Positions 20,761 to 60,138 of a stretch of 64,000 nt of DNA are shown piece by piece (within the stretch, counting starts at the first letter, position 1; the number at the start of each line of letters is the position of its first letter). The DNA is from Rhodopseudomonas palustris HaA2 (GTDB lineage: Bacteria > Pseudomonadota > Alphaproteobacteria > Rhizobiales > Xanthobacteraceae), in the NCBI RefSeq assembly GCF_000013365.1, contig NC_007778.1, forward strand, positions 2,108,001 through 2,172,000, given 5' to 3'. Both the position numbers and the translations under genes were made by a program. The notes beneath the pieces were generated by a model. The model was not told the DNA's origin and searched no databases. It saw only the letters and a program-made list of their open reading frames with translations.

Positions 20761-20789
20761 TTCAGTTGTTCGACATTCGCCCAGGCGCT

Positions 20790-28950: not shown

Positions 28951-28975
28951 GGAACCAATGATCATCTCGGACGAT
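28951..28975 (+). promoter_or_regulatory. EcfG-type promoter candidate upstream of the H1-like gene
   Basis: GGAAC (28951-28955), a 16-base spacer, then CGAT (28972-28975) differ from the alphaproteobacterial general stress consensus GGAAC-N16/17-CGTT by one base. It lies 27 bases before the ATG at 29003, leaving a short leader. Confidence 0.5.
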
Positions 28976-29002
28976 TGATCTTTGTTTCCATGGGAGGAAT
29001 TG

Positions 29003-29359
29003 ATGGCCAGAAAATATGCGAAGAAAGCGTCGGCCAAGGTCGCGCGCGCGATGAAGAAGCGCAAGTCCGGCACGCTGAAGAGCGGCGGCTCCGGCAAGAC
29101 GGTGAAGAGCCGCAAGCAGGCGATCGCGATCGGCCTGTCGGAAGCGCGCGCCGAAGGCAAGAAAGTGCCGAGCAAGAAGGGCGCGAAGAAGACCGGCACC
29201 AAGGCCACGAAGAAGACGACCAAGAAGTCGGCGAAGACGACCACAAAGAAGACGGCGGCGAAGAAGGCGACCAAGAAGTCGTCGAAAGAGAAGACGAAGA
29301 AGACGGCGGCCCGCAAGTCGGCGACGGGCCGCAAGCGCACGCCGTCGAAGAAGGGTTGA
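29003..29359 (+). CDS. DUF6496-type protein with histone H1-like lysine-rich tail
   Basis: A 118-residue, very basic protein. The N-terminal part (ARKYAKKASAKVARAMKKRK, GTLKSGGSGKTVKSRKQA, IAIGLSEARAEGKKVP) matches DUF6496. From about residue 60 on it is almost only Lys, Thr, Ala and Ser in TKKTTKKSAKTTTKK-like repeats, as in histone H1 and mycobacterial HU tails. DNA compaction is the expected activity. GGGAGG is placed well before the ATG at 29003. An EcfG-like promoter lies upstream and the ku-ligD pair follows, so a role in stress-time chromosome protection is plausible. Confidence 0.8.
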   Translation: MARKYAKKASAKVARAMKKRKSGTLKSGGSGKTVKSRKQAIAIGLSEARAEGKKVPSKKGAKKTGTKATKKTTKKSAKTTTKKTAAKKATKKSSKEKTKKTAARKSATGRKRTPSKKG

Positions 29360-29446
29360 GCTCCGTCGACAAACGCCCTCGCTACAAACGTCCTAGAGCC
29401 CTTCATCGAATGATTGAAGCAACGCGGCATTCTCGCGTGCGGTGTC

Positions 29447-29564
29447 GTCATCCTGAGGTGCGAGCGCAGCGAGCCTCGAAGGATGCGGCCAAGGCGTTTG
29501 CGGCTCATCCTTCGAGGCCCGCAGCGCCGCGCATGGCGCGGCCCAGCGGGCACCTCAGGATGAC
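29447..29564. repeat. Inverted intergenic repeat (GTCATCCTGAGGTGCGAG type)
   Basis: A 118-base palindromic element with end arms GTCATCCTGAGGTG (29447-29460) and CACCTCAGGATGAC (29551-29564), and inner arms CCTCGAAGGATG and CATCCTTCGAGG. It is a different family from the GTCATTCCGGGG repeats and lies directly before copy 2 of that family. The 421-base gap 29360-29780 holds these two repeats and no gene that I can see. Confidence 0.8.
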
Positions 29565-29598
29565 GGCGGTGATTCCATCAAAACCAGAGCTGCTCTAG

Positions 29599-29757
29599 CG
29601 TTCGTCATTCCGGGGCGCTCGCGCAAGCGAGCGAACCCGGAATCCATAACACCTACGCCAACTGGCAAGACGTACTCGATCGCCTTCCTCGCTCAAATCC
29701 GAGCACCGGGGTTATGGATTCCGGGCTCGCGCTACGCGCGCCCCGGAATGACGAACG
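29599..29757. repeat. Inverted intergenic repeat (GTCATTCCGGGGCGC type), copy 2
   Basis: A 159-base palindromic element with outer arms CGTTCGTCATTCCGGGGCGC at the left end and GCGCCCCGGAATGACGAACG at the right end. The inner arms are GAACCCGGAATCCATAAC and GTTATGGATTCCGGG. The outer arms match copy 1 at 24053-24150; the central ~60 bases do not. It lies just past the ku stop and may terminate ku. Confidence 0.8.
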
Positions 29758-29780
29758 ATGGATCGATTGGTAAAGGCGCC

Positions 29781-30662
29781 TCAGCTCGCCTTGCGTGAAC
29801 GCGCCGCCGAGCGGTGGGCCTTCTTCGCCGCGCGGCTACCGCCGCGTGACGCCGCGCGCCGCGGCGCAGGCTTGCTGCCCTTCTTGCCGCCGAGGCTCTG
29901 CTTGAGCGCATCCATCAGGCTGACGACGTTGTCGGACGTCTCGCGCGGCTCGGGGATCTTGATCGACTTGCCGGCGGCCTTGCGCTTGACCAGCGCCTTC
30001 AGCGCGGTCTCGTAGTCGTCCTTGAAGGTCGACGGATCGAAATGCGCCGCCTTGGTGTCGAGGATGTGCCCGGCGAGTTCGACCATGTCCTTGGAGATTT
30101 TCGGGCTCTTGATGCCGTCGAAATAATCCTCGGCGTCGCGCAGTTCGTAGGGATAACGCAACGTGGTGCCGAGCAGGCCCTTGCCGAGCGGCTCGATCGC
30201 GATCACATGCTCGCGGTTGGTCAGCACGATCCGCCCCAGCGCGACGCGGCCCTTGTCCTTCATCGCGTCGCGGATCACGGCGAAGGCGTCTACCCCGGCC
30301 TTGCCCTCCGGTGCGATGTAGTACGGATGGTCGAGGTAGCGCTTGTCGATCTCGTCGGCGGGCACGAAGCTGTCGATCTCGATGGTGTGGGTACTCTCGA
30401 TCTGCACCGCTTCGAGCTCGTCCTTCTCGATCGCGACATACTTGCCCTTGCGGACTTCGTAGCCGCGGCCCTTCTGCTGCTTTTCGACCACGTCGCCGGT
30501 TTCCTCGTCGATCATCTGCTGCTTCAGCCGGTTGCCGGTCTCGGTGTTGATCATGTGAAAGCGGGTCTTCTCGACGCTGGTCGAGGCCGGATACAGCGCC
30601 ACGGGACAACTGACCAAGGACAGTTTCAGCGAGCCCTTCCAGTAGGCGCGGCGCGGGGCCAT
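29781..30662 (-). CDS. ku: Non-homologous end-joining protein Ku
   Basis: A 293-residue bacterial Ku that binds DNA double-strand ends as a homodimer and recruits LigD. The opening APRRAYWKGSLKLSLVSCPV and the ring-forming segments FHMINTETGNRLKQQMID, GYEVRKGKYVAIEKDELE and YLDHPYYIAPEGKAG are typical. After the core (~residue 255) it has a basic tail rich in Arg, Ala, Ser and Lys ([17 protein letters not shown]), the extended C terminus that lets Ku bind or slide on DNA. GGAGAG precedes the ATG at 30662. It is divergent from ligD across 131 bases. Confidence 0.96.
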   Translation of the reverse strand: MAPRRAYWKGSLKLSLVSCPVALYPASTSVEKTRFHMINTETGNRLKQQMIDEETGDVVEKQQKGRGYEVRKGKYVAIEKDELEAVQIESTHTIEIDSFVPADEIDKRYLDHPYYIAPEGKAGVDAFAVIRDAMKDKGRVALGRIVLTNREHVIAIEPLGKGLLGTTLRYPYELRDAEDYFDGIKSPKISKDMVELAGHILDTKAAHFDPSTFKDDYETALKALVKRKAAGKSIKIPEPRETSDNVVSLMDALKQSLGGKKGSKPAPRRAASRGGSRAAKKAHRSAARSRKAS

Positions 30663-30715
30663 GATGCTCTCCGATGACGGGGGATGCGGGGCGACCGGAC
30701 GGCGGCGTCCGATCG

Positions 30716-30740
30716 GGAACTTCAACCCAGCGGTGGGGTT
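30716..30740 (+). promoter_or_regulatory. EcfG-type promoter candidate for ligD
   Basis: GGAAC (30716-30720), 16 bases, GGTT (30737-30740): one base from GGAAC-N16-CGTT. It points to ligD, whose ATG is 54 bases further. It overlaps an equivalent motif on the other strand aimed at ku. Confidence 0.4.
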
Positions 30741-30748
30741 TTGGTTCC
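30724..30748 (-). promoter_or_regulatory. EcfG-type promoter candidate for ku
   Basis: On the minus strand GGAAC (30748-30744), 16 bases, GGTT (30727-30724), the same one-base variant as the ligD motif. It points to the ku ATG at 30662. The two motifs together form a near-symmetric segment 30716-30748. Confidence 0.4.
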
Positions 30749-30793
30749 GGTGCTCGGCGACATGCGCACGAGCGCTGCGAGGCGGAGACGACC

Positions 30794-33538
30794 ATGGCGG
30801 CCAGCAAGACCCTCACCCTGTATCGCAACAAGCGCGACTTCGAACAGACCGCCGAGCCGCGCGGCGATGCCGAGGTCGTGCCGTCGAAGCGGCGGCGCTT
30901 CGTAATTCAGAAGCACGACGCGACGCGGCTGCACTACGACCTGCGGCTCGAATATGACGGCGTGTTCAAGTCCTGGGCGGTGACGCGCGGCCCATCGCTC
31001 GATCCACGCGACAAGCGGCTCGCGGTCGAGGTCGAGGACCACCCGCTCGACTACGGCGACTTCGAAGGCACCATTCCCAAGGGCCAGTACGGCGGCGGCA
31101 CGGTGCAACTCTGGGACCGCGGCTATTGGGACTGCGATGATCCCGAGCGGGGGTTCAAGACCGGCGATCTGAAATTCACGCTCGACGGCGAGAAGGTGCA
31201 CGGCAGCTGGGTGCTGGTGCGGATGCGCCACGACCGCAACGGCGGCAAGCGGACCAACTGGCTGCTGATCAAGCATCGCGACGACGACGCCCGCGAGGGC
31301 AAGGCCAACGACATTCTCGACGAGGATCGCTCGGTGGCGTCGGGCCGGACCATGAAGCAGATCGCCGAAGGCAAGGGGCGGGCGCCGAAGCCGTTCATGA
31401 CAGGCAAGGTGGCGCGGGTGAAGGCCGACGCGGTGTGGGACTCGAACAAGGGGCTGGCCGCGGACGCGCGCGCGGCCGACGACGCCGGAAAGGCGGCGAG
31501 ACCCAAGCGCGCCGCGGCGAAGAAGGCGCCGAAGAAGGCCGCAGCGAAGTCCCGCACAACGAAGACGACGTCGAGGGCCACGCGCAAGCCGGTGAAGGTC
31601 GCCGCAATGCCGGACTTCATCCCGCCGCAGCTCTGCACTTCGGTCGAGCGTCCGCCCGGCAGCGACGGCTGGCGCCACGAGATCAAGTTCGACGGCTATC
31701 GGATGCAGTTGCGCATCGCGCACGGCGAGGCTGCGCTCAGGACCCGCAAGGGGCTCGACTGGACCGCGAAATTTCGGGCGATCGCCGACGAGGCTGCGGG
31801 CCTGCCGGATGCGATCATCGACACCGAGATCGTCGCGCTCGATCATCACGGCCATCCCGACTTCGCGGCGTTGCAGGCGGCGCTGTCGGACGGCGACAGC
31901 GACAAGCTGATCTGCTTTGCGTTCGATCTGCTCTATGCCGACGGTGAGGATCTACGGTCTTTGCCGCTGTCCGAGCGCAAGCAGCGCCTGCAAGATCTGC
32001 TCAAAGCCGCGCGCGGACGTCGCAAGGAAGGCCTGATCCGCTATGTCGAGCACTTCGAGACCGGCGGCGATGCCATCCTGCAATCGGCCTGCAAGCTGTC
32101 GCTCGAAGGCATCGTCTCCAAGAAGCTGGACGCGCCGTATCGCTCCGGCCGCAGCGACAACTGGACCAAGGCGAAGTGCCGTGCCGGGCACGAGGTGGTG
32201 ATCGGCGGCTGGAAAACGACGGCCGGCAAATTCCGGTCGCTGATGGTCGGCGTGCAGAGCGACGATCGCGCGGGGAATCATCATTTGGCTTACGTCGGCC
32301 TGGTCGGCACCGGATTCGGCCAGGACGTGGTGAAGCGCATCCTGCCCGAGTTGAAGGCGCGCGCATCAAAGGACAATCCGTTCGCGGGCGAAAACGCGCC
32401 GCGCAAGACCAGCGACGTGAATTGGGTGACACCGGACCTGGTCGCCGAGATCGAATTCGCCGGCTTCACCGGCGCCGGCATGGTGCGGCAGGCGGCGTTC
32501 AAGGGGCTGCGCGCCGACAAGCCGGCGGACGAAGTCGTGGCGGAGAAGCCTGCCCAGGTCGGGATCGCGCGGCCGAAGCCGAAGCGCGGGACGAAAGCAG
32601 CCCCGGCTGTGCGGAAAGTCGCGTCCGCCGCCAGCCGCGCCGAGGTGATGGGAATCTCGATCTCCAAGCCGGACAAGGTGCTGTGGCCGGCGAGCGAGAT
32701 CAGCGAGGCGATCACCAAGCTCGACCTCGCACATTACTACGAAGCGGTCGGCGACTGGCTGATCGCGCACATCAAAGGGCGGCCGTGCTCGATCGTGCGG
32801 GCGCCCGACGGCATCGACGGCGAGCATTTCTTCCAGCGCCATGCGATGCCCGGGATGTCGAACCTGATCGACCTCGCGAAGGTCTCCGGTGACCGCAAGC
32901 CCTATGTCCAGATCGATCGTGTCGAAGGGCTGATCGCGGTGGCGCAGATCGGCGGCCTCGAACTGCATCCGTGGAACTGCGCGCCCGGCGCCTACGACGT
33001 ACCAGGGCGGCTCGTGTTCGATCTCGATCCCGCCCCGGATGTCGGCTTCGACGACGTGGTCGCCGCGGCACGCGAAATGAAAGACCGACTGGAGACGATC
33101 GGACTGTCGACGTTCTGCAAGACCACCGGCGGTAAGGGACTGCACGTCGTGGTGCCGCTGCAGCCGAAGGACGACGTCGACTGGAAGCAGGCCAAGATAT
33201 TCGCGCAGACGGTGTGCGCGCAGATGGCCGACGACAGTCCTGAGCGTTATCTGCTCAACATGTCGAAGCAGCAGCGCAAGGGAAAGATCTTCCTCGACTA
33301 CCTGCGCAACGACCGGATGTCGACGGCGGTCGCGGCGCTGTCCCCCCGGGCGCGCGAGGGAGCCACTGTATCGATGCCGGTGACCTGGAGTCAGGTCAAA
33401 GCGGGCCTCGATCCGAAGCGGTTCACGCTGGGTACGGTGCCGGCCCTGCTTCGCAAGACCAAGGCGTGGGCGGACTACGACGAATCAGCGGCCCCGCTGA
33501 GGGCGGCGCTCGAGGCGCTCGCATCCAGCGGGGCTTGA
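30794..33538 (+). CDS. ligD: Multifunctional NHEJ DNA ligase LigD (PE-LIG-POL)
   Basis: A 914-residue ATP-dependent end-joining ligase. The phosphoesterase domain (~30-190) shows [16 protein letters not shown] with His41, His47 and Asp49, and [12 protein letters not shown] with His83. A Lys/Ala/Arg-rich linker follows (~235-268, [16 protein letters not shown]). The ligase domain (~275-570) has the adenylated Lys298 in [10 protein letters not shown] and later [18 protein letters not shown]. The primase-polymerase domain (~620-900) has [14 protein letters not shown] and [12 protein letters not shown]. The ATG at 30794 follows GGCGGAG. Domain order matches Pseudomonas LigD. It works with Ku encoded next door. 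Confidence 0.96.
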
Positions 33539-33554
33539 AGGCGTCGCAGAGGGA

Positions 33555-33719
33555 TCAGATCTTGCCGAGCAGGAGCAGGATCACCAGAATGATGATGATC
33601 AGGCCGAGGCCGCCGCCGCCATAATAGCCGGTGCCGTAGAACGGTCCGCCGCCGATGCCGCTGAAACCGCCCAGCAGGGCAATGATCAGAATAATCAGTA
33701 TGATTGTGCCGATAGACAT
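33555..33719 (-). CDS. DUF3309 small membrane protein
   Basis: A 54-residue protein, MSIGTIILIILIIALLGG at the N terminus, a Gly/Tyr-rich hinge (GGGPFYGTGYYGGGGLG) and a second hydrophobic segment (IIIILVILLLLGKI). This two-segment layout is DUF3309. AAGGAGAG stands right before the ATG. It converges on ligD, 16 bases away. An EcfG-like promoter 56 bases upstream fits the stress-induced small-protein pattern. Function is unknown. Confidence 0.85.
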   Translation of the reverse strand: MSIGTIILIILIIALLGGFSGIGGGPFYGTGYYGGGGLGLIIIILVILLLLGKI

Positions 33720-33774
33720 CTCGCTCTCCTTGTCGCGACGGGTCGCCCGAATGCTCCGCCTCTGTCAGAGCGGA

Positions 33775-33799
33775 AACACGCGGCGAGAGTGAAGGTTCC
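33775..33799 (-). promoter_or_regulatory. EcfG-type promoter candidate for the DUF3309 gene
   Basis: Minus strand GGAAC (33799-33795), 16 bases, TGTT (33778-33775), one base off GGAAC-N16-CGTT, about 56 bases before the ATG at 33719. Confidence 0.4.
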
Positions 33800-33890
33800 A
33801 TAGATTGAACCGGCCGCATGCCCTGTTATTTCCGGTGGAGCGCCCTAAATACCGATCGACGCAACACCCCGATGACGGAAGGAAGTACGG

Positions 33891-34199
33891 ATGTCAGCTC
33901 CGCTTGTCGTATCGATACCTCATCGGCTGGGACGTGACGAAGCCGCGCGCCGTCTGAAGAGCGGGTTGGGCCAGGCGGCGGTCAGCGTGCCTATGCTGAA
34001 GCTCGACGAGGAGATCTGGCAGGGCGACCGTATGATTTTCAGAGTGCGCGCGCTGGGCCAGGTCGCGGCCGGCCACGTCGATATCGCCGACGATCACGTT
34101 CTGCTGGAAGTGCGATTACCATGGCTGCTGCAGAAATTCGCCGACGTCGCCCAGCAGACGATCCGCAAGCGCGGACACTTGCTGCTTGAGAAGAAGTAA
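33891..34199 (+). CDS. Polyhydroxyalkanoic acid system family protein
   Basis: A 102-residue protein: PLVVSIPHRLGRDEAARRLK, then MIFRVRALGQVAAGHVDIAD and LEVRLPWLLQKFADVAQQ. This matches the small PHA_gran_rgn family linked with polyhydroxyalkanoate systems, although many members are not near PHA genes and none are here. GGAAGG precedes the ATG. It is alone on the + strand between the DUF3309 gene and the trehalose operon. Confidence 0.8.
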   Translation: MSAPLVVSIPHRLGRDEAARRLKSGLGQAAVSVPMLKLDEEIWQGDRMIFRVRALGQVAAGHVDIADDHVLLEVRLPWLLQKFADVAQQTIRKRGHLLLEKK

Positions 34200-34229
34200 C
34201 GCGTATCGCCGCATCGCGACAGGGATGCG

Positions 34230-34244
34230 TGTTGCTACGCAACA
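34230..34244. promoter_or_regulatory. Short perfect palindrome TGTTGC-TAC-GCAACA
   Basis: A 6-3-6 inverted repeat lies 31 bases after the PHA-family stop and about 90 bases before a small ORF candidate. It lacks a T-run, so it is more like a protein-binding site than a terminator. The regulator is unknown. Confidence 0.3.
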
Positions 34245-34329
34245 AGCAAGTCATCGAATCTTTTGCATCTGCGTCTTAAGGCTCGCGTAACCGCTGGCTG
34301 AAATCATCGCGAAGCGGAGGAGGGAACCG

Positions 34330-34395
34330 ATGACCAATCGGCACGAGATCCGCCAAGCCGTCCGGCGCGAGATCCCGGACGGCTTTGCTCTGTAG
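34330..34395 (+). CDS. Candidate 21-residue small protein
   Basis: ATG at 34330 is preceded by an unusually good ribosome site, GGAGGAGGG (34316-34324), and opens a 22-codon frame reading MTNRHEIRQAVRREIPDGFA then Leu and TAG. The peptide is basic and helix-compatible. The 3' half of the frame coincides with a perfect 11-bp hairpin (34355-34385), so this could also be the terminator of the upstream gene with a fortuitous frame, or a leader-type ORF. Expression evidence is needed; I give it modest weight. Confidence 0.35.
   Translation: MTNRHEIRQAVRREIPDGFAL
34355..34386 (+). terminator. Strong hairpin, probable terminator between convergent units
   Basis: AAGCCGTCCGG (34355-34365) pairs perfectly with CCGGACGGCTT (34375-34385) around a 9-base loop, followed by T and GCTC. 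It lies between the + strand PHA-family gene and the end of the leftward glucan operon (treY stop at 34414), where a terminator is expected. Confidence 0.55.
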
Positions 34396-34413
34396 TCTCC
34401 CCGCGACCGCGAT

Positions 34414-41035: not shown

Positions 41036-41037
41036 GC

Positions 41038-43188
41038 TCAATCTTCCGGCTTCAGAAAGATCGCGGCCAGCGGCGGAATGTTCAGACTGAGCTCGGGCAC
41101 CAATCCCTCGAGAGTCCGAACCTCGCCGGCGTTGCCGACATTGCTGCCGCCGTAAATCGCGGCGTCGGAATTCAGCACCTCGCGCCAGCGGCCGGGGAAG
41201 GGCACACGGACGCGGTAGTCCTGATAGACGTTCGGGGAGAAATTCACGATCACCAGGCAGCGCGCCCGGGTGTCGTTGCCCTTCCGCATCCAGGCGAACA
41301 CGTTGCGCGCGGCGTCTTCGGTGATGATCCATTCGAAGCCGAACGGATCGCAATCGAGCTGATGCAGCGCCGGCAAGTCCCGGTACAGTCTGTTGAGGTC
41401 GCGGACCAGCGCCTGGATGCCGGCGTATTTCGGGGTGTCGAGCAGGTGCCAGTCGAGTGAGCGATCGTGATTCCACTCCCGCTCCTGGCCGAATTCGCTG
41501 CCCATGAACATCAGCTTCTTGCCCGGATGCGCGAACATGAAGGCGTAGTAGGCGCGCAGATTGGCGAAGCGCTGCCATTCGTCGCCCGGCATCCGGCCGA
41601 GGATCGAGCGTTTGCCGTGCACGACCTCGTCGTGCGACAGCGGCAGGATGAAGTTCTCCGAGAATGCGTAGTGCAGCCCGAACAGGATCTGGCCGTGGTG
41701 ATATTTGCGGTGGATCGGATCCTTGCTGATGTAGTTCAGCGTGTCGTGCATCCAGCCCATGTTCCACTTGTAGCCGAAGCCGAGCCCGCCGAACTCGACC
41801 GGGCGCGACACCTGCGGCCAGGCGGTGGATTCCTCGGCTGCCGTGGTGGCCTGCGGGAATTTGGCGTAGACCTCGGCGTTGAAGCGGCGCAGGAAGTCGA
41901 TCGCCTCGATGTTCTCGCGGCCGCCGAACTTGTTCGGGATCCAGCCGCCCGCCGGCCGGCTGTAGTCGAGATACAGCATCGAGGCCACCGCATCGACCCG
42001 CAACCCGTCGATGCGGTAGCGTTCCAGCCAGAACAGCGCGTTCGACACCAGGAAGTTCACCACTTCGGTGCGGCCGTAATTGTAGATCAGCGTGCCCCAG
42101 TCCAGATGCCGGCCCTGCAGCGGGTTGGCGTGCTCGTACAGCGCGGTGCCGTCGAAATTGCCGAGCCCGTGCGGATCGTCGGGGAAGTGGCCGGGGACCC
42201 AGTCGAGCAGCACGCCGATGCCGTGCTCATGGCAGGCGTCGATCAGCGCGCAGAAATCCTCCGGCGTGCCGAACCGGCTGGTCGGCGCAAACAGCCCGGT
42301 CGGCTGATAGCCCCAGGAGCCGTCGAACGGATGCTCGCTGACCGGCAAAAATTCGACATGGGTGAAGCCCATGTCGCGGACATAGGCCGGCAATTGCTCG
42401 GCGAGCTCGCGATAGGTCAGCCACTGCTCGCCGTCCTTGCGGCGCCACGAGCCCAGATGCACCTCGTAGATCGACATCGGCGCGCCGAGCGCGTTGATGT
42501 TGTCCGGCGCCGGGCGTGGCAGCGGCAGCCGGGTCTGATCCACCACGATCGAGGCCGTCTTCGGCCGCATCTCGGCGGCGAACGCCATCGGATCGGACTT
42601 TTGCGGCAGCGTCTCGCCGTTCGGCCCGGTCATGTCGAATTTGTAGTGATCGCCGGCGGTGGCGCCGGGGATGAACAGCTCCCAATAGCCGTTGCCGCGC
42701 ACCCGCATCTGGTGCCGGCGCGGATTCCAGAAGTTGAAGTCGCCGACCACGCTGACGCGGCGGGCATTGGGCGCCAGCACCACGAAGCCGACGCCTCTGA
42801 CGCCTTCCAGCACCATCGGGTGCGCGCCGAGCTTGTCGTACAGCCGCTGATCGGTGCCTTCGCCCAGCAGATACAGATCGAACTCGGTCAGGATCGGGGG
42901 AAAGCGATACGGATCTTCGAGATCCACGGTAGTGTCGCCGAACCGGGCGCGGAGCTGATAGCGATGTGAGCCGTTCGGCAGCGGCCCGGCGAACAGACCG
43001 GCATCGTGAACCCGCTCGAGGATGGCCGTCTCGCCATGCTCGCCGACCGCCTCGACCGCGGTCGCATCCGGCAACAGCGCCCGGACGACGACGCGGTCGT
43101 CCTCGGGATGCGGGCCGAGATAGCGAAACGGGTCCGCGTGGCGGCCTTCGAGCACCGCATAGGCGTCATCGGTCAATTGGACGGTCAT
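41038..43188 (-). CDS. glgB: 1,4-alpha-glucan branching enzyme GlgB
   Basis: A 716-residue GH13 enzyme that introduces alpha-1,6 branches. Two N-terminal beta domains are present ([38 protein letters not shown]). The barrel includes [16 protein letters not shown], the nucleophile [19 protein letters not shown], the acid [14 protein letters not shown] and [17 protein letters not shown]. It branches the linear chains made by GlgE. GGAGAATTC precedes the ATG, which overlaps the treS stop by 4 bases. Confidence 0.97.
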
Positions 43189-46487: not shown

Positions 46488-46498
46488 GGTTGCGCTCC

Positions 46499-48454
46499 TC
46501 ACGCCAGGCAGCGGAAAAGCAGCGCAGGATCGCGTTGCGGATCGATCCGTAGCGTGAGGCCGCCCCATTCCACGGCGTGCCGCTCGCCGGTGAGCAGATT
46601 CTCGACCGCCACGACCGGGCGGCGCTCGCCGCCGACCTCGACCTGGGTGTCGCCGAGCGGAAACCAGAATTCATGGAAATCGCGCGACAGCGCGATCGCG
46701 ACGGCCACGACGTTGGTCAGGTCCGTTGAGTATTTGACGAAGCCGGTCACGTTGGGATCCTGGATATCCACGAAGCGAAGATTGCTCGTCTGCTGAAGCG
46801 CCGGATTGTTGCGGCGGGCCTGATTGATCTCGCGGATATAAGGCTTGATATTGCCCGGTCTGTCCCAGTCGCGGACCTTGATCTCGTATTTTTCGGAATC
46901 GAGATACTCCTCCTTGCCGGGGATCGGCGCGTGTTCGATCAGCTCGAAGCCGTTATAGATGCCATAGGTCGATGACAGCATCGCGGCGAGCGCAAGGCGG
47001 GATTTGAACATCCACGGCTCGCCGCCCTGCAGATGGTAGGGGAGGATGTCCGGGGTATTGACGAAGAAATTCGGGCGGTAGAAATCACGCTCCGGATAGC
47101 CTGTCAGTTCGCGCAAGTATTCCTCGATCTCCCACTTCTGCGTCCGCCAGGTGAAGTAGGTGTAGGACTGGCTGAAGCCGAGTTTGGCGAGCCCCTTCAT
47201 CAGCTTCGGCCGGGTGAAGGCCTCGGCGAGAAACAGCACGTCGGGGTGAGCGAGCTGAACCTCGTGGATCAGCCATTCCCAGAACCGCAGCGGCTTGGTG
47301 TGCGGGTTGTCCACCCGAAAGATCTTCACGCCGTGGTCGACCCAGAACAGGATCACGTCGCGCAGCGCATTCCACAGCGAGCCGGCGTCCTCGCAGGTGA
47401 AATCCGGATTGACGATGTCCTCGTATTTCTTCGGCGGGTTCTCGGCGTATTTCATCGAGCCGTCGGGACGGCGCTTGAACCAGTCCGGATGCTGCTTCAG
47501 CCACGGGTGATCCGGCGAGCATTGCACCGCGATGTCGAGCGCGATCTCGACGTTCACCAGCTTGCAGGCTTCGACCAGCGCGTGGAAATCGTCGAGCGTG
47601 CCGAGCTCGGGATGCACCGCGTCGTGGCCGCCTTCCTCAGCACCGATCGCATAGGGGCTGCCCGGATCGCCGGGGTCGGCCTTCAGCGAGTTGTTGCGGC
47701 CTTTGCGATTGACGCGGCCGATCGGGTGGATCGGCGTGAAATACAGCACATCGAAGCCCATCGCCGCGATGTCCGGCAACCTTGCGATGCAGTCGCGGAA
47801 GGTGCCGTGCTGGCCGGGCACCGTGCTCTGGCTGCGCGGCACCATCTCGTACCACGCTCCGCAGCGGGCGCGTTCGCGGTCGATCATCAGCGGCAGCAGC
47901 GCGGAGCGGGTGACGTCCGGCCGCGCCTGGCTTTCGGCCATCGCGTCGCGCAATTCGGGGGTGAGCAAAGGCGCCACGTCGCCGGTCTGCAGATAGTCCT
48001 CGCATTGCCGCTGAATAACGGTCAGCGCTTCGTGCCCGCCGTTCAGAGCTTTGGTCAGCATCCCGGCGCCTTCCAGCGCGTCGAGTGCGACGTCTTGCCC
48101 CGCCTTCTGCTTCAGCTCGATGCCGTGCCGCCAGGTCGCGAATTCGTCGGTCCACGCTTCGATCGCATAGACATATCGTCCAATATGATCGGGCACGAAG
48201 GAGGCGGTCCAGCGATCGTTGACGACGTGACGCATCGGGACGCGCTGCCAATCCTGATCCTGCTCGCGCCGCCAGACCAGCGCCGCAGCGATCACCTCGT
48301 GACCGTCGCGATACACGTCCGCCCAGATCTCGATGGGCTCGCCGACAACCCGCTTGACGGGAAATCGGCCGCTGTCGATGATCGGGAAGATATCTTCAAT
48401 TTGGAAAGCGCCGCCAGCCGAGACGGTCTGGAATGCTTGAGTCGATCTGTTCAC
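46499..48454 (-). CDS. glgE: Maltose-1-phosphate maltosyltransferase GlgE
   Basis: A GH13_3 enzyme that extends alpha-1,4-glucan with maltosyl units from maltose 1-phosphate. It carries FQIEDIFPIIDSGRFPVKRV at the N terminus, VLYFTPIHPIGRVNRKGRNN, the nucleophile Asp382 in KIFRVDNPHTKPLRFWEW and Glu411 in LFLAEAFTRPK. With GTG at 48454 it has 651 residues, the usual size. A longer TTG start is possible but has no family support, and the ribosome site before the GTG is poor. It is the first gene of the leftward operon. Confidence 0.94.
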   Translation of the reverse strand: MNRSTQAFQTVSAGGAFQIEDIFPIIDSGRFPVKRVVGEPIEIWADVYRDGHEVIAAALVWRREQDQDWQRVPMRHVVNDRWTASFVPDHIGRYVYAIEAWTDEFATWRHGIELKQKAGQDVALDALEGAGMLTKALNGGHEALTVIQRQCEDYLQTGDVAPLLTPELRDAMAESQARPDVTRSALLPLMIDRERARCGAWYEMVPRSQSTVPGQHGTFRDCIARLPDIAAMGFDVLYFTPIHPIGRVNRKGRNNSLKADPGDPGSPYAIGAEEGGHDAVHPELGTLDDFHALVEACKLVNVEIALDIAVQCSPDHPWLKQHPDWFKRRPDGSMKYAENPPKKYEDIVNPDFTCEDAGSLWNALRDVILFWVDHGVKIFRVDNPHTKPLRFWEWLIHEVQLAHPDVLFLAEAFTRPKLMKGLAKLGFSQSYTYFTWRTQKWEIEEYLRELTGYPERDFYRPNFFVNTPDILPYHLQGGEPWMFKSRLALAAMLSSTYGIYNGFELIEHAPIPGKEEYLDSEKYEIKVRDWDRPGNIKPYIREINQARRNNPALQQTSNLRFVDIQDPNVTGFVKYSTDLTNVVAVAIALSRDFHEFWFPLGDTQVEVGGERRPVVAVENLLTGERHAVEWGGLTLRIDPQRDPALLFRCLA

Positions 48455-48544
48455 GTGATGCGATAGGACCGTAGCCCTATTTCCCTGGAAGTCGAACAAC
48501 GCCCGGTCGTCTCGTAACAAAGCCTCAGGAACGGCAAAGTTCCC

Positions 48545-48569
48545 GGAACTCACTCTACGCAATCGCGTT
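48545..48569 (+). promoter_or_regulatory. EcfG-type promoter upstream of malQ (perfect consensus)
   Basis: GGAAC (48545-48549), exactly 16 bases, CGTT (48566-48569), an exact match to the alphaproteobacterial general stress promoter. It lies between glgE and malQ and points to malQ, whose ATG is 72 bases downstream. An overlapping GGAAC on the other strand (48543-48539) with CTTT after 16 bases could serve glgE but is weaker. Confidence 0.6.
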
Positions 48570-48641
48570 GCAGACGACTATCCTCTTCGGAATTGGCGGA
48601 TTCGCCGCGCACCCCGCGCGGCGACGCAGACAGCGTGCCTG

Positions 48642-50615
48642 ATGGATTTATTGACCAAAGCTGCAGAACTCGGAATTCAAACCGAATTCTTCGATGGGCA
48701 GGGGCAGCGCCACGTCACTCCGCCCGACGCCCTCAAGATCGTTCTCGATGCGATGCCGGTGCGGTCGACGCATCGATTGCTCGACCGGATCGCCGTTGTT
48801 CGGGCCGGGGAAGAGGCTGCTGCAGATCTGAGCGATGCAGCGGTCTTGCCGGTGGCGTGGAAAATTGTCGCAGGCGACGCCTGCGTGGCGGAAGGGACGA
48901 CCCAGCAGCGCCGCGTCACCTGGCCGTCGCATTTGCCGGTCGGCAGCTATCGTCTGCATCTTTCAGACGCGGGCGGTCACACTGAGGAGGCGCCGCTCCT
49001 GGTGACGCCGCCCACCGCCTTTCGCGGCGAGTTCGATCGCTCCTGGATCATCGCGGTGCAACTCTACGGACTGCGCTCCGCGCGCAATTGGGGCATCGGC
49101 GACTTCACCGATCTGGCGCGATTGATCGAGATTGCGGCCGGATGGGGCGCAGGCGGCATCGGCCTCAATCCGTTGCATGCGCTGTTCGACGATCGGCCGG
49201 GCGACTGCAGTCCGTATTCGCCCAACAGCCGCATGTTTCTCAACCCGCTGTATATCGATGTCGAGCGACTGCCCGAATTCAAACTCGCCGATCTGCCGGG
49301 CGCCGCGGACGCGCTCGCGCCGCTGCGCGACGCGGAACTGATCGACTATCCGAAATCGGCCGATCTCAAATGGCGTGCGCTACGGATGGCTCACGCGGCG
49401 TTTCGCGCCGCGCCGGCGCCGGATCGACGCGCCGCGTTCGAGGCCTTTCGCCGCGAGCGCGCTCCGCTGCTGACCCGGTTCGCCTGCTTCGAGGCGCTGA
49501 GGCATCGGTTCGCCAAGCCGTGGTGGGAATGGCCGGATGAATGGCAGCATCCCGACGATGTCCGTTGCGCCCGCTTGCGTGACGGTGCCGACGGCGCCGA
49601 GATCGAATTCATCGAATACGTCCAATGGTGCGCCGACGATCAGTTGCGCGCCTGCCACGACCTCGCTGCCGCGCGCGGCATGGATGTCGGGCTTTATCTC
49701 GACGTTGCGGTCGGCGTGCAGAGCGACGGCTTCGACGCCTGGAACGAGCAGGTCGCGATCTCCCGGCATCTGTCGGTCGGCGCGCCGCCGGACCAGTTGA
49801 ACTCGGCCGGGCAAAACTGGGGCCTCGCGGGCTTCAACGCCGCGGGGCTCGAACTCACCGGCTTTGCGTCGTTCCGCGAGATGCTGCGCGCCTCGATGCG
49901 CTATGCCGGCGCGATCCGGCTCGATCATGTTCTCGGCTTGAACCGGCTGTATCTGGTGCCGCACGGCTACGCCGCCGACAGCGGCGTGTATGTGCAGATG
50001 CCGTTCGAAGCGCTGCTGGCGGTCACCGCGCAGGAGAGTGTCGCCAATCGCTGCGTGGTGATCGGCGAGGATCTCGGCACGGTGCCGGAAGGCTTCCGCG
50101 AGCGCCTGGCGGCGTGGGGCGTGTGGTCGTATCGCGTGATGATGTTCGAGCGCGACTTCCATCAGGGGTGGTTCTTCGGCGTCGATCATTATCTGCCGGA
50201 GGCGCTGGTGACCTTCAACACCCACGACCTCGCGACCTATTCGGGCTGGCGCGCCTCGACAGACCTGCAGTTCAAGCATTCGGTGGGGATCGATCCCGGC
50301 GAGAGCGACGATGCCAGGCGATACGCCTTCGCGATGCTCGGCGACGTGCTGCGGCAGCAGGGCATCGAACAGGAGGATATCTATGCGGTGCTCACCTTCC
50401 TGGCGCGAACCCGGTCGCGACTGCTGGCGATCTCGCTCGAAGATCTGCTCGGCGTGATCGATCAGCCCAACGTGCCCGGCACCGTGTTCCAGCATCCGAA
50501 CTGGCGCCGTCGCCTGCCGCGCGCGCTGGACGAGATCGCGTCGGCGATCAATCAGCAGGCGCTGTCCGCCGCGACGCGGGAGCGCCGGTCCGCGGTGACA
50601 TCCGTTGCCGGGTAG
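48642..50615 (+). CDS. malQ: 4-alpha-glucanotransferase (amylomaltase) MalQ
   Basis: A 657-residue GH77 enzyme that disproportionates maltodextrins and releases glucose. It has an N-terminal extension domain (~1-130). The GH77 barrel includes VQLYGLRSARNWGIGDFTD, YSPNSRMFLNPLYIDVE, the nucleophile AIRLDHVLGLNRLYLVP, the acid VVIGEDLGTVPEGFR and ALVTFNTHDLATYSGW. The ATG at 48642 is the only good start, though its ribosome site is weak. It overlaps the next gene by 11 bases and is divergent from the glgE operon. Confidence 0.95.
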   Translation: MDLLTKAAELGIQTEFFDGQGQRHVTPPDALKIVLDAMPVRSTHRLLDRIAVVRAGEEAAADLSDAAVLPVAWKIVAGDACVAEGTTQQRRVTWPSHLPVGSYRLHLSDAGGHTEEAPLLVTPPTAFRGEFDRSWIIAVQLYGLRSARNWGIGDFTDLARLIEIAAGWGAGGIGLNPLHALFDDRPGDCSPYSPNSRMFLNPLYIDVERLPEFKLADLPGAADALAPLRDAELIDYPKSADLKWRALRMAHAAFRAAPAPDRRAAFEAFRRERAPLLTRFACFEALRHRFAKPWWEWPDEWQHPDDVRCARLRDGADGAEIEFIEYVQWCADDQLRACHDLAAARGMDVGLYLDVAVGVQSDGFDAWNEQVAISRHLSVGAPPDQLNSAGQNWGLAGFNAAGLELTGFASFREMLRASMRYAGAIRLDHVLGLNRLYLVPHGYAADSGVYVQMPFEALLAVTAQESVANRCVVIGEDLGTVPEGFRERLAAWGVWSYRVMMFERDFHQGWFFGVDHYLPEALVTFNTHDLATYSGWRASTDLQFKHSVGIDPGESDDARRYAFAMLGDVLRQQGIEQEDIYAVLTFLARTRSRLLAISLEDLLGVIDQPNVPGTVFQHPNWRRRLPRALDEIASAINQQALSAATRERRSAVTSVAG

Positions 50616-52410: not shown

Positions 52411-52420
52411 GCGCCCGCCC

Positions 52421-54502: not shown

Positions 54503-56009
54503 CTGGCCGAGCCGCGCCAGTTGCGGCCGTCGCGGGCGAGCAGGGTTTCGGCGTCCTGCGGGCCTTCGCTGCCGGCTTCGTAGGTCTGAAGCCCGTTGGC
54601 GCCCGCCCTCTCCCAGGCATCGAGGAACGGCTGCACCGCGCGCCAGCCGGCCTCGACGCCGTCGGCGCGCTGGAACAGGATGTTGTCGCCGATCATGCAG
54701 TCGTGCAGCAGCGTCTCGTAGCCGTTGCTCGGCGCGACCTTGAAGTAATCCTTGTAGCGGAAGCTCATCTCGACGCCGTCGATCGCGATCGTCGGGCCGG
54801 GAATCTTGGTGTTGAACTGCAGTGAAATGCCTTCGACCGGCTCGATCCCGATCACCAGATAGTTCTGCGACAATTGCTCCACCGGCGTGCAGCGGAACAT
54901 CGCGAACGGCGCCTGCTTGAACTTGATCGCGACCTCGGTACGCTTGGCGCCGAGCGCCTTGCCGGTGCGCAGATAGAACGGCACGCCGGCCCAGCGCCAG
55001 TTGTCGATCGTCAGCTTCAGCGCCGCATAGGTTTCGGTGGTGCTGCCTGGCGCGACATCCTTGACGCTGCGATAATCAGGGATCTCGGTGTCGCCGACCT
55101 TGCCGGCGATGTATTGTGCGCGGACCGAATTGCGCAGCGCTTCCTCTTCGTTCTGCACCTGAATCGCGGTGAGCACTTCGGCCTTGGCCGAGCGCACCGA
55201 ATGCGCGTTGAAATGCGCCGGCGGCTCCATCGCCACCAGCGACAGCAACTGGAACAGATGGTTCGGCACCATGTCGCGTAGCGCGCCGGTCTTGTCGTAG
55301 AAGCTGCCGCGATGGCCGACGCCAAGCTTTTCGTCGACGGTGATCTGGATGTGGTCGATATGATCCCTGTTCCAGATCGGCTCGAACATGCCGTTGGAAA
55401 AACGTAGCACCAGGATGTTCTGCACCGTCTCTTTGCCGAGATAATGATCGATCCGGTACAGATCGTGTTCGGCGACGATGCCGAGCAGATGGTCGTTCAG
55501 CGCTTTGGCGGAGGCGAGGTCGGTGCCGAACGGCTTCTCGACGATCAACCGGCGCCACGCCTGATCATTGCCCTGCAGCAGGCCGGCACGACCGAGTTCG
55601 GTCGCGATCGGCGCGAAGGCATCGGGCGGTGTCGCCAGATAGAACAGCCGGTTGCCGCCGGTGTTGCGATTGGCCTCGAGCTTTTCCAGCCGCTCGCGCA
55701 GCCGGTCGAACGAGGGCGGGTCGGACGGATCGGCGCTGACCGCCGTCACGCAGTACAGCAGCTTGTCGGCGACATCCTCGTTCACCGGCCGCGTCGCGAA
55801 TTTACGCAGGCCGTGCATCAGGCTGGCGCGCAGGTCCTCGCTCGACATCTCCGAGCGAGTGATGCCGACCACGCAGAATTTCTCCGGCAGCAGATCGGCT
55901 TCGGCGAGATTGTACAACGCCGGAACCACCAGGCGGTGAGTGAGGTCGCCGGTGACGCCGAAGATGACGAAGGCGCAGCCGTCCGGAACCTGTGGATTCG
56001 CCTGAGTGG

Positions 56010-56013
<4 letters not shown>
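54499..56013 (-). CDS. zwf: Glucose-6-phosphate dehydrogenase Zwf
   Basis: A 504-residue NADP-linked enzyme, first step of the oxidative pentose phosphate and Entner-Doudoroff routes. The nucleotide loop is [18 protein letters not shown]. The active-site signature is [17 protein letters not shown], with [14 protein letters not shown] before it. The start is GTG at 56013, overlapping the gnd stop as GTGA; earlier in-frame codons run into gnd. It is the third gene of the operon. Confidence 0.97.
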
Positions 56014-57047
<1,034 letters not shown>

Positions 57048-57110
57048 GAAGGATCTCCTATGTGTCCGGGCTCCGCTTGAATGCGGAGCCTCGTTGTCGT
57101 CGTTCAGTCG

Positions 57111-59963
57111 TTAGTTCAGTGCGTCGCGGATCGCCTTATCCAGCGACTTCAGTCCGGCCCCGAGGTCGCCCTTGAGATGGACGCGGAGCGCGCGACGGCC
57201 ACGTTCCGTGAGCACGTCGAAATCGCCGCGGGCCTGCGCAGCCTTGATCACGCCGAAGCTCGCGCTCTGGCCCGGGACGGCGAGATCGTTCGCATCGTCG
57301 GCGGTGATCTGCAGGAACACGCCGCTGTCCGGCCCGCCCTTGTAGGCCTGGCCGGTGGAGTGCAGGAAGCGCGGGCCGAATTCGGCGCAGGTCGCCAGAT
57401 GCCTGGCGTCGCGCACCGCGAGGCGCATCGACTGCAGCGTGTCGATATGCGCCGCATTGCGTTCGATATAGGCCAGCAGCGCCACATAGTCGCCGCTCTG
57501 CGTGCGGGCGAGATGCGCCTTGATCCACGAATCCAGCGTGCCGTCGGCCCCGGCCTTGCGTAGCGCCGCGACGTTGGACTCGTCGGTGTAGAGATCGGCG
57601 TCCGCCGTCGTCAGAGCCGGCTTCTCGGGCGGAAGGACGCCGGAGGTCTCGAACGCCGCGGTCAGTTCGCGGGTCTTGATCTTGGCGGATTCGACGTCCG
57701 GCTGGTTGAACGGATTGATGCCGAGGATCGCACCGGCCACCGCGGTGGCGAGTTCGAAGCGGAAGAACTCCTGGCCGATCGCGTCGGCTGATTTCAGCAC
57801 GATCCGCACCACCGGATGGCCGGCGTCCTCCAGTGCTGCGAGCTTGGCGTCGTGCGCGGCGTCGCTCTCGCCGTCGGTGCGCAGATCGATGAACAGCCGG
57901 TCGTTGCCGTAAGTCGACGGCGCGGCCAGCGGCTCGCCGTCGATCGGAATCAGGCCCTTGCCGTCCTTGCCGGTCGATTCCGCGATCAGTTGCTCGGCCC
58001 AGGCGCCGAAATCGGCGATCGCCTTCGACGACGTGATGGTCACCTTGTCGCGGCCTTCCAGCCCGGCGCAGCCCATCGCGAGGCCGAGCTGCACGCCCGG
58101 GTTTTCCTGCGGCGGCACGTCAGGCCCGCAGGAGCGGACCATCGCCATTGTCAGGTCGAGCAGTTGGCCGAGATCGATGCCGGCCGCGGCGGCCGGCACC
58201 ATGCCGAACGGTGACAGCACCGAATAGCGACCGCCGATGGTCGGATCGCCATGGAAGATGCGGGCGAACTTCGCTTCGGTCGCGACCTTTTCCATCGACG
58301 AGCCGGGATCGGTGACGGCGACGAAATGCTGTCCGGCCTTGTCGGCGCCGACGGTCTCGCCGACGCGGGCGAAGAAGTAATCCTTCATCACGTTGGGCTC
58401 GGTGGTGCCGCCGGATTTCGACGACACGATGAACAGCGTCGTTCCGAGCGTGACGCTGTGCTCCAGCGTGCGCACCTGCGCCGGATCGGTGGAGTCGAGC
58501 ACATGCAGCTTCGGGAAGCCCGGCTGCTGCGCGAAGGTGTGGGCGAGCACTTCGGGACCGAGGCTCGATCCGCCCATGCCGAGCACGACGGCGTCGGTGA
58601 AGCCGCGCGCCTTCACCCATTTGGCGAATTCGGTGTAGTCGGCGAGCTTCGCCTTCTCCGCCGCGGCCGAAGTCAGCCAGCCGAGCCATTTGTCTTCGTC
58701 GGTGCCGGTCCACACCGATTTATCACGATCCCACAGCCGACGGATCTTGCCGGTGTTGCGCCAGTCCTCGCCATGCTCCTTGACGGATTTGGCGAGATCG
58801 TCGGCGAGTGCGAGCTTCTGGGTGTCGATGCCGCCGGCAAGCACGGTTTCGCGCTTGAACGCCACCGCGCCGAGCAGCTTGTCGAACGAATCCGCGAACA
58901 ACTGCACTGCTTCGGTGACCAGCCTGTCGGTGATCGCATCGAGCGAGACGCCGACATTGGCGAGATCCTTCAGCGCCGCGCGGGCGTCGTCGACGTGTTC
59001 TTCCAGGCTGGCGCGCGGCTTGCCGTGATCGCGGAAGGCGTCGAGCGTCGCCGGCGGCACGGTATTGACGGTGTCGGGGCCGATCAGCTCCTCGATATAG
59101 ACGACGTCGCTGTAGGCTTTGTTCTTGGTGCCGGTCGATGCCCACAGCAGTCGCTGCGGCTTGGCGCCACAAACCTGCAGCTTCTTCCAGCGGTCGCCGG
59201 AGAACAGCCGCTTGTAGTCCTGATAAGCGATCTTGGCGTTGGCGATCGCGATCTTGCCCTTCAGCTTCTCCAGCCGGGCCTTCTCGGCCGGATCGTTGGC
59301 GGTGGCGATCTTGTCGTCGAGTTCCTTGTCGACCGCGCTGTCGATCCGGCTGACGAAGAAGCTGGCGACGCTGGCGACGTGTGACGGGTCGCCGCCGTTC
59401 GCGATCAGCGCTTCGAGCCCGGAGAGATAGGCCTCCGCGACCTCGACATAGACCTTCTGCGAGAACAGCAGCGTGACGTTGACGCTGATGCCCTTGGAAA
59501 TCAGCTGCTTGATCGCGGGCAGGCCCTGCCGTGTGGCAGGGACCTTGACCATCAAATTCTCGCGCTTCACCGCGGCCCACAGTCGCTCGGCTTCGACGAT
59601 CGTCGCCTTGGTGTCGAGCGCCAGATAGGGCGAGACCTCGAGGCTGACGAAGCCGTCGCGGCCTTCGAGCTTGTCGTAGGTCGGGCGCAGCACATCGGCT
59701 GCGTGCTGAATGTCCTCGACCGCGACCGCCTCGTACAATTCGCCGACCGAACGGTCGCCCTGCGCGAGAGCGGCGCCGATCGCGCCGTCATATTCGTCCG
59801 AGGAGCCGATCGCCTTTTCGAAGATCGATGGGTTGGAGGTGACACCCTTCACGCCGTCGGCGTCGATCAGCTTCGTCAGGTCGCCCTTGGCGATAAAGCC
59901 GCGGGCCAAGAAATCCAGCCAGATTGCCTGGCCGTGTTGTTCGAGCGCTTTGACGGGGTTCAT
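57111..59963 (-). CDS. Bifunctional transaldolase/glucose-6-phosphate isomerase
   Basis: A 950-residue fusion. Residues ~1-365 are transaldolase: LIDADGVKGVTSNPSIFEKA, the Schiff-base Lys140 in NLMVKVPATRQGLPAIK and VNVTLLFSQKVYVEVAEAYL. Residues ~400-950 are phosphoglucose isomerase: VVLGMGGSSLGPEVLAHTFA, LFIVSSKSGGTTEPNVMKD, FHGDPTIGGRYSVLSPFGM and LGINPFNQPDVESAK. The fusion links the non-oxidative pentose phosphate branch to glucose 6-phosphate. It is the first gene of the operon with gnd, zwf, pgl, gntK and a HAD phosphatase gene. Confidence 0.96.
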   Translation of the reverse strand: MNPVKALEQHGQAIWLDFLARGFIAKGDLTKLIDADGVKGVTSNPSIFEKAIGSSDEYDGAIGAALAQGDRSVGELYEAVAVEDIQHAADVLRPTYDKLEGRDGFVSLEVSPYLALDTKATIVEAERLWAAVKRENLMVKVPATRQGLPAIKQLISKGISVNVTLLFSQKVYVEVAEAYLSGLEALIANGGDPSHVASVASFFVSRIDSAVDKELDDKIATANDPAEKARLEKLKGKIAIANAKIAYQDYKRLFSGDRWKKLQVCGAKPQRLLWASTGTKNKAYSDVVYIEELIGPDTVNTVPPATLDAFRDHGKPRASLEEHVDDARAALKDLANVGVSLDAITDRLVTEAVQLFADSFDKLLGAVAFKRETVLAGGIDTQKLALADDLAKSVKEHGEDWRNTGKIRRLWDRDKSVWTGTDEDKWLGWLTSAAAEKAKLADYTEFAKWVKARGFTDAVVLGMGGSSLGPEVLAHTFAQQPGFPKLHVLDSTDPAQVRTLEHSVTLGTTLFIVSSKSGGTTEPNVMKDYFFARVGETVGADKAGQHFVAVTDPGSSMEKVATEAKFARIFHGDPTIGGRYSVLSPFGMVPAAAAGIDLGQLLDLTMAMVRSCGPDVPPQENPGVQLGLAMGCAGLEGRDKVTITSSKAIADFGAWAEQLIAESTGKDGKGLIPIDGEPLAAPSTYGNDRLFIDLRTDGESDAAHDAKLAALEDAGHPVVRIVLKSADAIGQEFFRFELATAVAGAILGINPFNQPDVESAKIKTRELTAAFETSGVLPPEKPALTTADADLYTDESNVAALRKAGADGTLDSWIKAHLARTQSGDYVALLAYIERNAAHIDTLQSMRLAVRDARHLATCAEFGPRFLHSTGQAYKGGPDSGVFLQITADDANDLAVPGQSASFGVIKAAQARGDFDVLTERGRRALRVHLKGDLGAGLKSLDKAIRDALN

Positions 59964-60113
59964 GTGCCTGGTCTGTTCATTCTGTGCGGATGAGGCCTCG
60001 CGGGCATTTCCGTCCGGGAGCGGAGGCTTGTCAACTCATCCTCAGTGTCAGCTTGCTCGGTGCCGGCTTGCGTGCGCCTGCCAGTGTGTCAGCCGATCCC
60101 GCTGAGGGTAAAA

Positions 60114-60138
60114 TACGTTTGAAATGCCAAACGGTTCC
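60114..60138 (-). promoter_or_regulatory. EcfG-type promoter candidate for the tal-pgi operon
   Basis: Minus strand GGAAC (60138-60134), 16 bases, CGTA (60117-60114), one base from consensus, about 150 bases before the ATG at 59963. The rest of the 227-base gap shows no other feature that I recognise. Confidence 0.4.

What the first reader, a model, noticed from the sequence alone, without database searches (positions are those of the whole stretch)
28951..60138. Shared EcfG-type stress promoters point to a stress-survival island
Six sites of the form GGAAC-N16-CGTT (one perfect, five with one mismatch in the -10) sit in intergenic regions and point to genes: the H1-like DUF6496 gene (28951), ligD (30716), ku (30748 minus), the DUF3309 gene (33799 minus), malQ (48545, perfect) and tal-pgi (60138 minus). 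I did not notice comparable intergenic matches in the first 28.9 kb. My own estimate is that one perfect match per 64 kb would arise by chance on two strands and two spacings, so the placement in front of the units, not any single site, is the argument. If real, DNA end-joining, nucleoid proteins, trehalose/glucan turnover and NADPH production respond together to the PhyR-EcfG general stress response.
Basis: partly seen in the sequence, partly recalled or inferred. Interest (0 to 1): 0.75.

Follow-up and report, generated by a model that had tools for sequence, protein, structure and literature searches.

The report
One stress promoter, two DNA-repair genes
The predicted stress-response promoters in this stretch of a Rhodopseudomonas genome look real and are conserved in relatives, and two of them turn out to be a single 33-base element that appears to be read in both directions to switch on the two DNA-break-repair genes ku and ligD together.

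Summary
Seven promoter-positioned sites compare with a mean of 0.61 for the 359 other permuted motifs (6 if the malQ start is not set by hand), and they recur upstream of the same genes in relatives. The genome encodes PhyR, NepR and EcfG. Expression was not tested.

The new result: the ku and ligD sites are one 33-bp interleaved element (30716-30748), each promoter's -10 lying inside the other's spacer. The exact pattern occurs once in each of 69 of 296 family genomes, never in the reversed control, always between divergent ku and ligD. In a Ku-based sample, 19 of 19 divergent loci seen keep the 33-bp frame, 16 exactly. The embedded second -10 is present in 31 of 33 ku promoters facing ligD, and 2 of 39 not facing it.

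The "island" is weaker: 7 sites in 64 kb against 14 in 400 kb (nominal p 0.019). GSR control of ku-ligD and glucan genes is known elsewhere.

The parts
30716..30748 (.). 33-bp interleaved face-to-face EcfG-type promoter pair between ku and ligD, GGAAC-N3-AAC-N11-GTT-N3-GTTCC
30716..30740 (+). ligD-directed EcfG-type promoter, -35 GGAAC, N16, -10 GGTT
30724..30748 (-). ku-directed EcfG-type promoter, -35 GGAAC, N16, -10 GGTT (CGTT in G003, G004, G011)
29781..30662 (-). ku (Ku beta-barrel, PF02735)
30794..33538 (+). ligD (phosphoesterase, ligase, primase-polymerase domains)
28951..28975 (+). EcfG-type site before the DUF6496 gene, -10 CGAT
29003..29359 (+). DUF6496 gene; lysine-rich C-terminal part read from the sequence
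   Evidence: sequence
33775..33799 (-). EcfG-type site before the DUF3309 gene, -10 TGTT
33555..33719 (-). DUF3309 gene
48545..48569 (+). perfect EcfG site before malQ, perfect in 15 of 16 genus genomes
48642..50615 (+). malQ, 4-alpha-glucanotransferase (PF02446); start chosen by hand, the script preferred 48852
48519..48543 (-).
46499..48454 (-). glgE (GlgE_dom_N_S), first of a same-strand run of genes down to 34414 with alpha-amylase and CBM48 domains; the names treS, glgB, glgX, treZ and treY for them are recalled from such clusters, and 41038-43188 was not scanned
60114..60138 (-). EcfG-type site before tal-pgi, -10 CGTA
57111..59963 (-). tal-pgi fusion (transaldolase plus phosphoglucose isomerase)

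Best explanation
The sites are promoters for EcfG, the general-stress sigma factor of alphaproteobacteria. On stress PhyR would take NepR off EcfG, and EcfG-RNA polymerase would then start transcription of DUF6496, ku, ligD, DUF3309, glgE (with the glucan and trehalose genes behind it), malQ and tal-pgi. For ku and ligD a single 33-bp element serves both genes. Read in one direction it is GGAAC-N16-GGTT for ligD; in the other it is GGAAC-N16-GGTT (CGTT in some relatives) for ku. Each -10 lies 3 bp below the other promoter's -35, inside its spacer, and each predicted start falls at about the other's -35. Polymerase should therefore be able to occupy it in only one direction at a time, switching both genes on with the same signal and, when EcfG is abundant, making them share initiations. 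Shown here: the sites, their placement, their conservation, the fixed geometry and the presence of the regulator genes. Inferred: EcfG binding, the start positions, mutual exclusion, and its effect on the Ku:LigD balance.
For: Placement against permuted motifs; conservation in relatives; NepR, EcfG and PhyR genes in one locus, with GGAAC-N16-CGTA before phyR. The exact 33-bp pattern occurs once per genome in 69 of 296 family genomes with 0 reversed-control hits, and all 69 lie between divergent ku and ligD: 30 of 30, 14 of 14 genus loci, 7 and 18 of 18. In a Ku-based sample of 119 genomes, 22 loci have Ku of 65% identity or more; all 19 of these with divergent ligD keep the 33-bp frame with at most 1 change in 16 fixed bases. 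AAC at positions 9-11 of the ku promoter: 31 of 33 with divergent ligD against 2 of 39 without, Fisher p 1e-15, nominal because loci are related. Central 11 columns average 38% identity among 85 unique elements. One genome has 34 bp, moving both spacers to 17 together. In Sphingopyxis granuli ku-ligD is in the GSR regulon, and TGTT, CATT and GGTT are the most frequent non-consensus -10 boxes and were used as in vitro templates (PMC7083833, passages). A Sphingomonas melonis table of EcfG-controlled transcripts lists ku, a 4-alpha-glucanotransferase, a trehalohydrolase and GlgX, the last three with low motif scores (PMC6599016, passages).
Against: No expression, start-site or ecfG-mutant data for this organism. 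Whole-genome motif counts are not raised (55 against 64 reversed). The -10 variants CGAT, CGTA and CTTT are not among those I read of in the in vitro work. Away from the genus, tal-pgi keeps the site in 7 of 17 genomes, and one permuted motif also reached 7; DUF6496 keeps it in 9 of 17, where CGGAA-CGTT also reached 9 and GGAAC-GCTT 11. Upstream of ku genes that do not face ligD, the motif with up to one mismatch is found in 20 of 49, but a shifted word, GAACG-CTTG, in 22. Six of the 22 loci with Ku of 65% identity or more lack the exact 33-bp pattern: 3 have no ligD found beside ku, 3 have one change. Of 33 divergent loci, L041 (outside the family) does not have the 33-bp frame.
Confidence: 0.86

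Rival explanations
1. The ku-ligD palindrome is an operator for a dimeric regulator rather than two promoters.
For: It is a near-symmetric inverted repeat kept at fixed spacing.
Against: Ku genes without a facing ligD keep the ku-directed half more often than the other: GGAAC in 41 of 49 and GTTCC in 18 of 49 within 150 bp, and AAC at 9-11 is mostly lost (2 of 39). Spacers stay at 16, or become 17 together when a base is added.
Confidence: 0.05
2. Real promoters, but served by another ECF sigma factor that also reads GGAAC.
For: An almost invariant AAC in the -35 is reported for ECF sigma factors in general (PMC7083833, passage).
Against: The N16 spacing and the -10 set match the GSR motif of PMC7083833, and ku is a GSR target there and in PMC6599016 (passages).
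Confidence: 0.07
3. Chance matches in a GC-rich genome.
For: Total motif counts are near chance.
Against: Placement and conservation upstream of the same genes across relatives.
Confidence: 0.02

Closest known systems
EcfG-dependent promoters of the alphaproteobacterial general stress response (PhyR-NepR-EcfG)
   Same: -35 GGAAC, N16-17, -10 CGTT or GGTT/TGTT/CATT; targets include ku-ligD (PMC7083833, passages; ku also in PMC6599016, passages)
   Different: Two complete promoters interleaved on opposite strands; no such arrangement was mentioned in the passages I read
Bidirectional promoters of E. coli (Warman et al. 2026, PMC12825309; abstract and introduction read)
   Same: Pseudo-symmetric DNA that engages polymerase in one of two exclusive orientations and drives divergent transcription
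Stress-inducible NHEJ of Sinorhizobium meliloti (Dupuy et al. 2019; title seen in a reference list; paper not held; content recalled)
   Same: NHEJ genes placed under the general stress response (recalled)
   Different: Promoter arrangement there not checked

Membership tests
EcfG-type promoter | -35 GGAAC with N16-17 spacing to a CGTT-like -10 | tested here: met
   All seven have GGAAC and N16; -10 CGTT in one, one mismatch in six
EcfG-type promoter | Upstream of a gene and conserved there | tested here: met
   DUF3309 in 2 genomes only
EcfG-type promoter | EcfG, NepR and PhyR encoded in the genome | tested here: met
EcfG-type promoter | Transcription lost without EcfG, start 5-10 bp below the -10 | not testable with these tools
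   needs RNA work
Bacterial bidirectional promoter | Sequence symmetry that offers a full promoter on each strand of one element | tested here: met
Bacterial bidirectional promoter | Shared or overlapping -10 with starts most often 10, 18 or 23 bp apart | tested here: not met
   The two -10s are at positions 9-12 and 22-25 of the element; starts about 30 bp apart are predicted, not mapped
Bacterial bidirectional promoter | Mutually exclusive polymerase binding | not testable with these tools
   follows from the overlap, not measured

The most novel reading that the evidence does not exclude
In Rhodopseudomonas, Bradyrhizobium and their kin, Ku and LigD are expressed from a single interleaved two-way EcfG promoter, held at 33 bp so that polymerase must choose one direction per initiation. 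This would keep the two end-joining partners in a set ratio with low cell-to-cell noise under stress, and would be a class of bidirectional promoter distinct from the shared -10 class.
Probability: 0.5. Interest if true: 0.65.

Novelty: new variant of a known kind. Interest (0 to 1): 0.5.

Why it matters
The bidirectional promoters I read of use the housekeeping sigma factor and a shared -10 (PMC12825309). Here a stress sigma factor appears to use a different, rigid geometry, kept for one gene pair across several genera. It gives a compact test of whether polymerase competition is used to balance two proteins that work together, and it ties end-joining repair to the stress response in a group that includes Rhodopseudomonas palustris, which survives growth arrest for months (PMC13343836), and Bradyrhizobium.

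Tried and rejected
Bulk motif counts: near chance, so placement and conservation were used instead. Other face-to-face GGAAC...GTTCC pairs in the own genome: 111 against 85 reversed. The printed list was cut; among the places shown I saw by eye none other with both -10s, but this was not scored. Of the 118 stretches fetched, 68 lie between ku and ligD, 1 has ligD only within reach, 49 have neither. Titles were shown for 80 of the 118; the 29 'neither' ones among these are scattered over unrelated phyla, a few of them alphaproteobacteria, as chance would give. One hit between ku and ligD is titled a Mucilaginibacter MAG and may be mis-binned.

Limits of my own tests. The 33-bp pattern was the query, so its frequency there is biased; the Ku-based sample is the fair one, but only its 30 best matches came with loci, so weaker Ku genes were not looked at. 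The 33 and 49 loci come, and the genomes were picked for lacking the exact pattern; 10 of the 49 had no site and are outside the 39. In one search the divergence flag of the 14 genus loci was set by hand; one search tested it for all 14. Two low-identity ku loci (L099, L102) were left out of the column counts (73 elements; 85). In one search three weak GlgE matches and one DUF6496 locus were dropped.

A dimeric operator was considered and judged unlikely; LexA was dropped from recall of its box, with no test. B. japonicum start-site paper (PMC4842269, passages): 'ligD' and 'bidirectional' do not occur in its main text; Ku was not searched, supplements could not be opened. Print searches for this arrangement: no papers; one paper, PMC7083833; listings; no listed title or abstract start described it. 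The NHEJ survey PMC7719229 (passages) has no 'promoter' or 'divergent' in its main text. The library lacks most subscription papers; Gourion et al. 2009 (B. japonicum regulon) and Dupuy et al. 2019 were not read.
Full report
Check of the observation. The six sites are at the stated places. Letter counts alone do not set them apart: 20 matches with up to one mismatch against 13.0 expected for N16, reached by 5 of 100 shuffles; 10 against 13.0 for N17; 55 perfect N16 in the genome against 64 for the reversed pattern. I therefore called genes with a codon-usage script and asked where exact-GGAAC sites with at most one -10 mismatch fall. In the window 7 of 17 are promoter-positioned, against a mean of 0.61 over the 359 other permuted motifs, none reaching 7. 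The malQ start was set by hand; without that, 6 within 250 bp or 7 within 300 bp, still above all 359. In a 400-kb even sample of the same genome 14 of 76 are promoter-positioned, a number that two permuted motifs also reach; 5 are perfect, which no other motif reaches (mean 0.48). The seventh window site, 48543 minus, points to glgE. Around the perfect sites outside the window, 34 of 54 are promoter-positioned, 9 otherwise intergenic and 11 coding (slightly looser limits, no permuted control).

Conservation. G002 matches nearly the whole window; in G003, G004 and G011 the shared order begins at about 22 kb, and in G014 at about 28.7 kb, with some genes missing. Counting G000, the sites recur upstream of the same genes: malQ, glgE, ligD and tal-pgi 6 of 6, ku 5 of 5, DUF6496 5 of 6, DUF3309 2 of 2 (the DUF3309 gene was not found in G003, G004, G011 and G014). 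The number of genes with a hit in every ortholog is 7 of 52, against a mean of 0.33 and a best non-GGAAC value of 3; that 7 includes a doubtful site before the gene at 20999 and excludes DUF6496. The malQ site is perfect in 15 of 16 genus genomes; G008 did not align. In other genera of the family the malQ site, with up to one mismatch and N16 or N17, is found in 13 of 13 loci with divergent malQ. GlgE keeps GGAAC with a GCTT-like -10 in 14 of 14, but only 8 of 14 by the CGTT rule. tal-pgi keeps a site in 7 of 17, where one permuted motif also reaches 7, and DUF6496 in 9 of 17, where CGGAA-CGTT also reaches 9 and GGAAC-GCTT 11.

Regulators. NepR, an ECF sigma factor directly behind it and a divergent PhyR lie in one locus, with GGAAC-N16-CGTA before phyR. 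In R. palustris CGA009 ecfG is raised about sevenfold in growth arrest (PMC13343836, passages).

The ku-ligD element. The two sites overlap: GGAACTTCAACCCAGCGGTGGGGTTTTGGTTCC, 30716-30748. Read as GGAAC-N3-AAC-N11-GTT-N3-GTTCC, the exact pattern is found once in each of 69 of 296 family genomes in 7 genera, with no reversed-control hit. All 69 lie between divergent ku and ligD: 30 of 30 loci, 14 of 14 genus loci, 7 more and 18 of 18. Because that search presupposed the pattern, I also started from Ku alone. Among 119 family genomes, 22 loci have Ku of 65% identity or more; 19 of these have ligD divergent within 250 bp, of which 16 are exact and 3 (G091, G097, G135) have one change in the 16 fixed bases; for the other 3 no ligD was found beside ku. 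Weaker Ku matches were looked at only in the 8 further loci given, none with ligD beside it. Among 22 genomes chosen because they lack the exact pattern, G213 has a 34-bp version in which both spacers become 17 together, and G300 has ligD 819 bp away. Outside the family, L041 has divergent ku and ligD without this frame.

Natural control. AAC at positions 9-11 of the ku promoter is the facing promoter's -10. It is present in 31 of 33 ku promoters that face ligD and in 2 of 39 that do not; of those 2, one has ligD 819 bp off and one has no ligD in the 610 bp held. Ku genes without facing ligD still carry GGAAC-N16/17-CGTT: perfect in 11 of 49 (mean 0.19, best non-GGAAC 5), up to one mismatch in 20 (a shifted word reaches 22), up to two in 41 (mean 4.2, best non-GGAAC 26). 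Unique elements keep the fixed letters by construction of the search, while the central 11 columns average 38% identity. Most ligD -10s are GGTT (74 of 85), and ku -10s are GGTT (48) or CGTT (29). In a wider collection, 68 of 118 fetched stretches with the pattern lie between ku and ligD; the scan was cut at its limit.

Mechanism. A palindromic operator would not explain why ku promoters without ligD keep mainly one half with EcfG spacing. Two interleaved EcfG promoters explain the fixed 33 bp, the embedded second -10, its loss when ligD is absent, and the paired change to 17. In E. coli, bidirectional promoters bind polymerase in one of two exclusive orientations, and competition matters when activity is high and lowers noise (PMC12825309, abstract and introduction). 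Whether that holds here is inference. The same region has a second divergent pair, glgE and malQ, with their -35s back to back, 1 or 3 bp apart in 15 of 16 genus genomes, which is a different geometry.

Island. Ku (or the ku-ligD element), glgE and tal-pgi lie within about 31 kb in 9 of 17 genomes looked at, five of g37 and four of g39, all picked for carrying the element. So the linkage reaches beyond the genus, but the regulon is spread over the genome.

Known background. GSR control of ku-ligD in Sphingopyxis is published (PMC7083833, passages); a Sphingomonas table lists ku and glucan genes (PMC6599016, passages); treS and the ots genes are EcfG-controlled in Bradyrhizobium diazoefficiens (PMC8092242, passages). 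What I did not find in the searches listed under Tried and rejected is the interleaved element. The genus name is inferred: the G008 locus (same genus as the window) shares 29 of 38 sampled 100-base words with a record titled Rhodopseudomonas sp. B29.

Noticed in passing
window 48519-48569: glgE and malQ EcfG-type sites stand back to back, the two GGAAC 1 or 3 bp apart in 15 of 16 genus genomes; a similar layout is kept in 13 loci of other genera.
   Followed up: partly
window 29446-29762: Four inverted repeat pairs (16-28 nt arms, 89-100% complementary) between the DUF6496 gene and ku, like dispersed palindromic repeats (the comparison is recalled).
   Followed up: no
L099, L102: Two family genomes carry the 33-bp element before a distant Ku (49-53% identity) facing a LigD relative (56-58% identity; best match covers only residues 271-600), so the layout is not limited to close orthologs.
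   Followed up: partly
G010 and G014 (genus): In G014 ligD keeps its site but no ku was found in the syntenic region; in both genomes the only ku found is a 52-53% identical copy.
   Followed up: no
window 20742-20767 (+): GGAAC-N17-AGTT at the 3' end of the upstream gene, before the gene at 20999; G002 has a perfect match at another distance.
   Followed up: no
L041: A divergent ku-ligD pair outside the family has a different overlap: a 20-bp GGAAC...GTTCC palindrome with a ku site ending in AGTT and no clear ligD -10.
   Followed up: no
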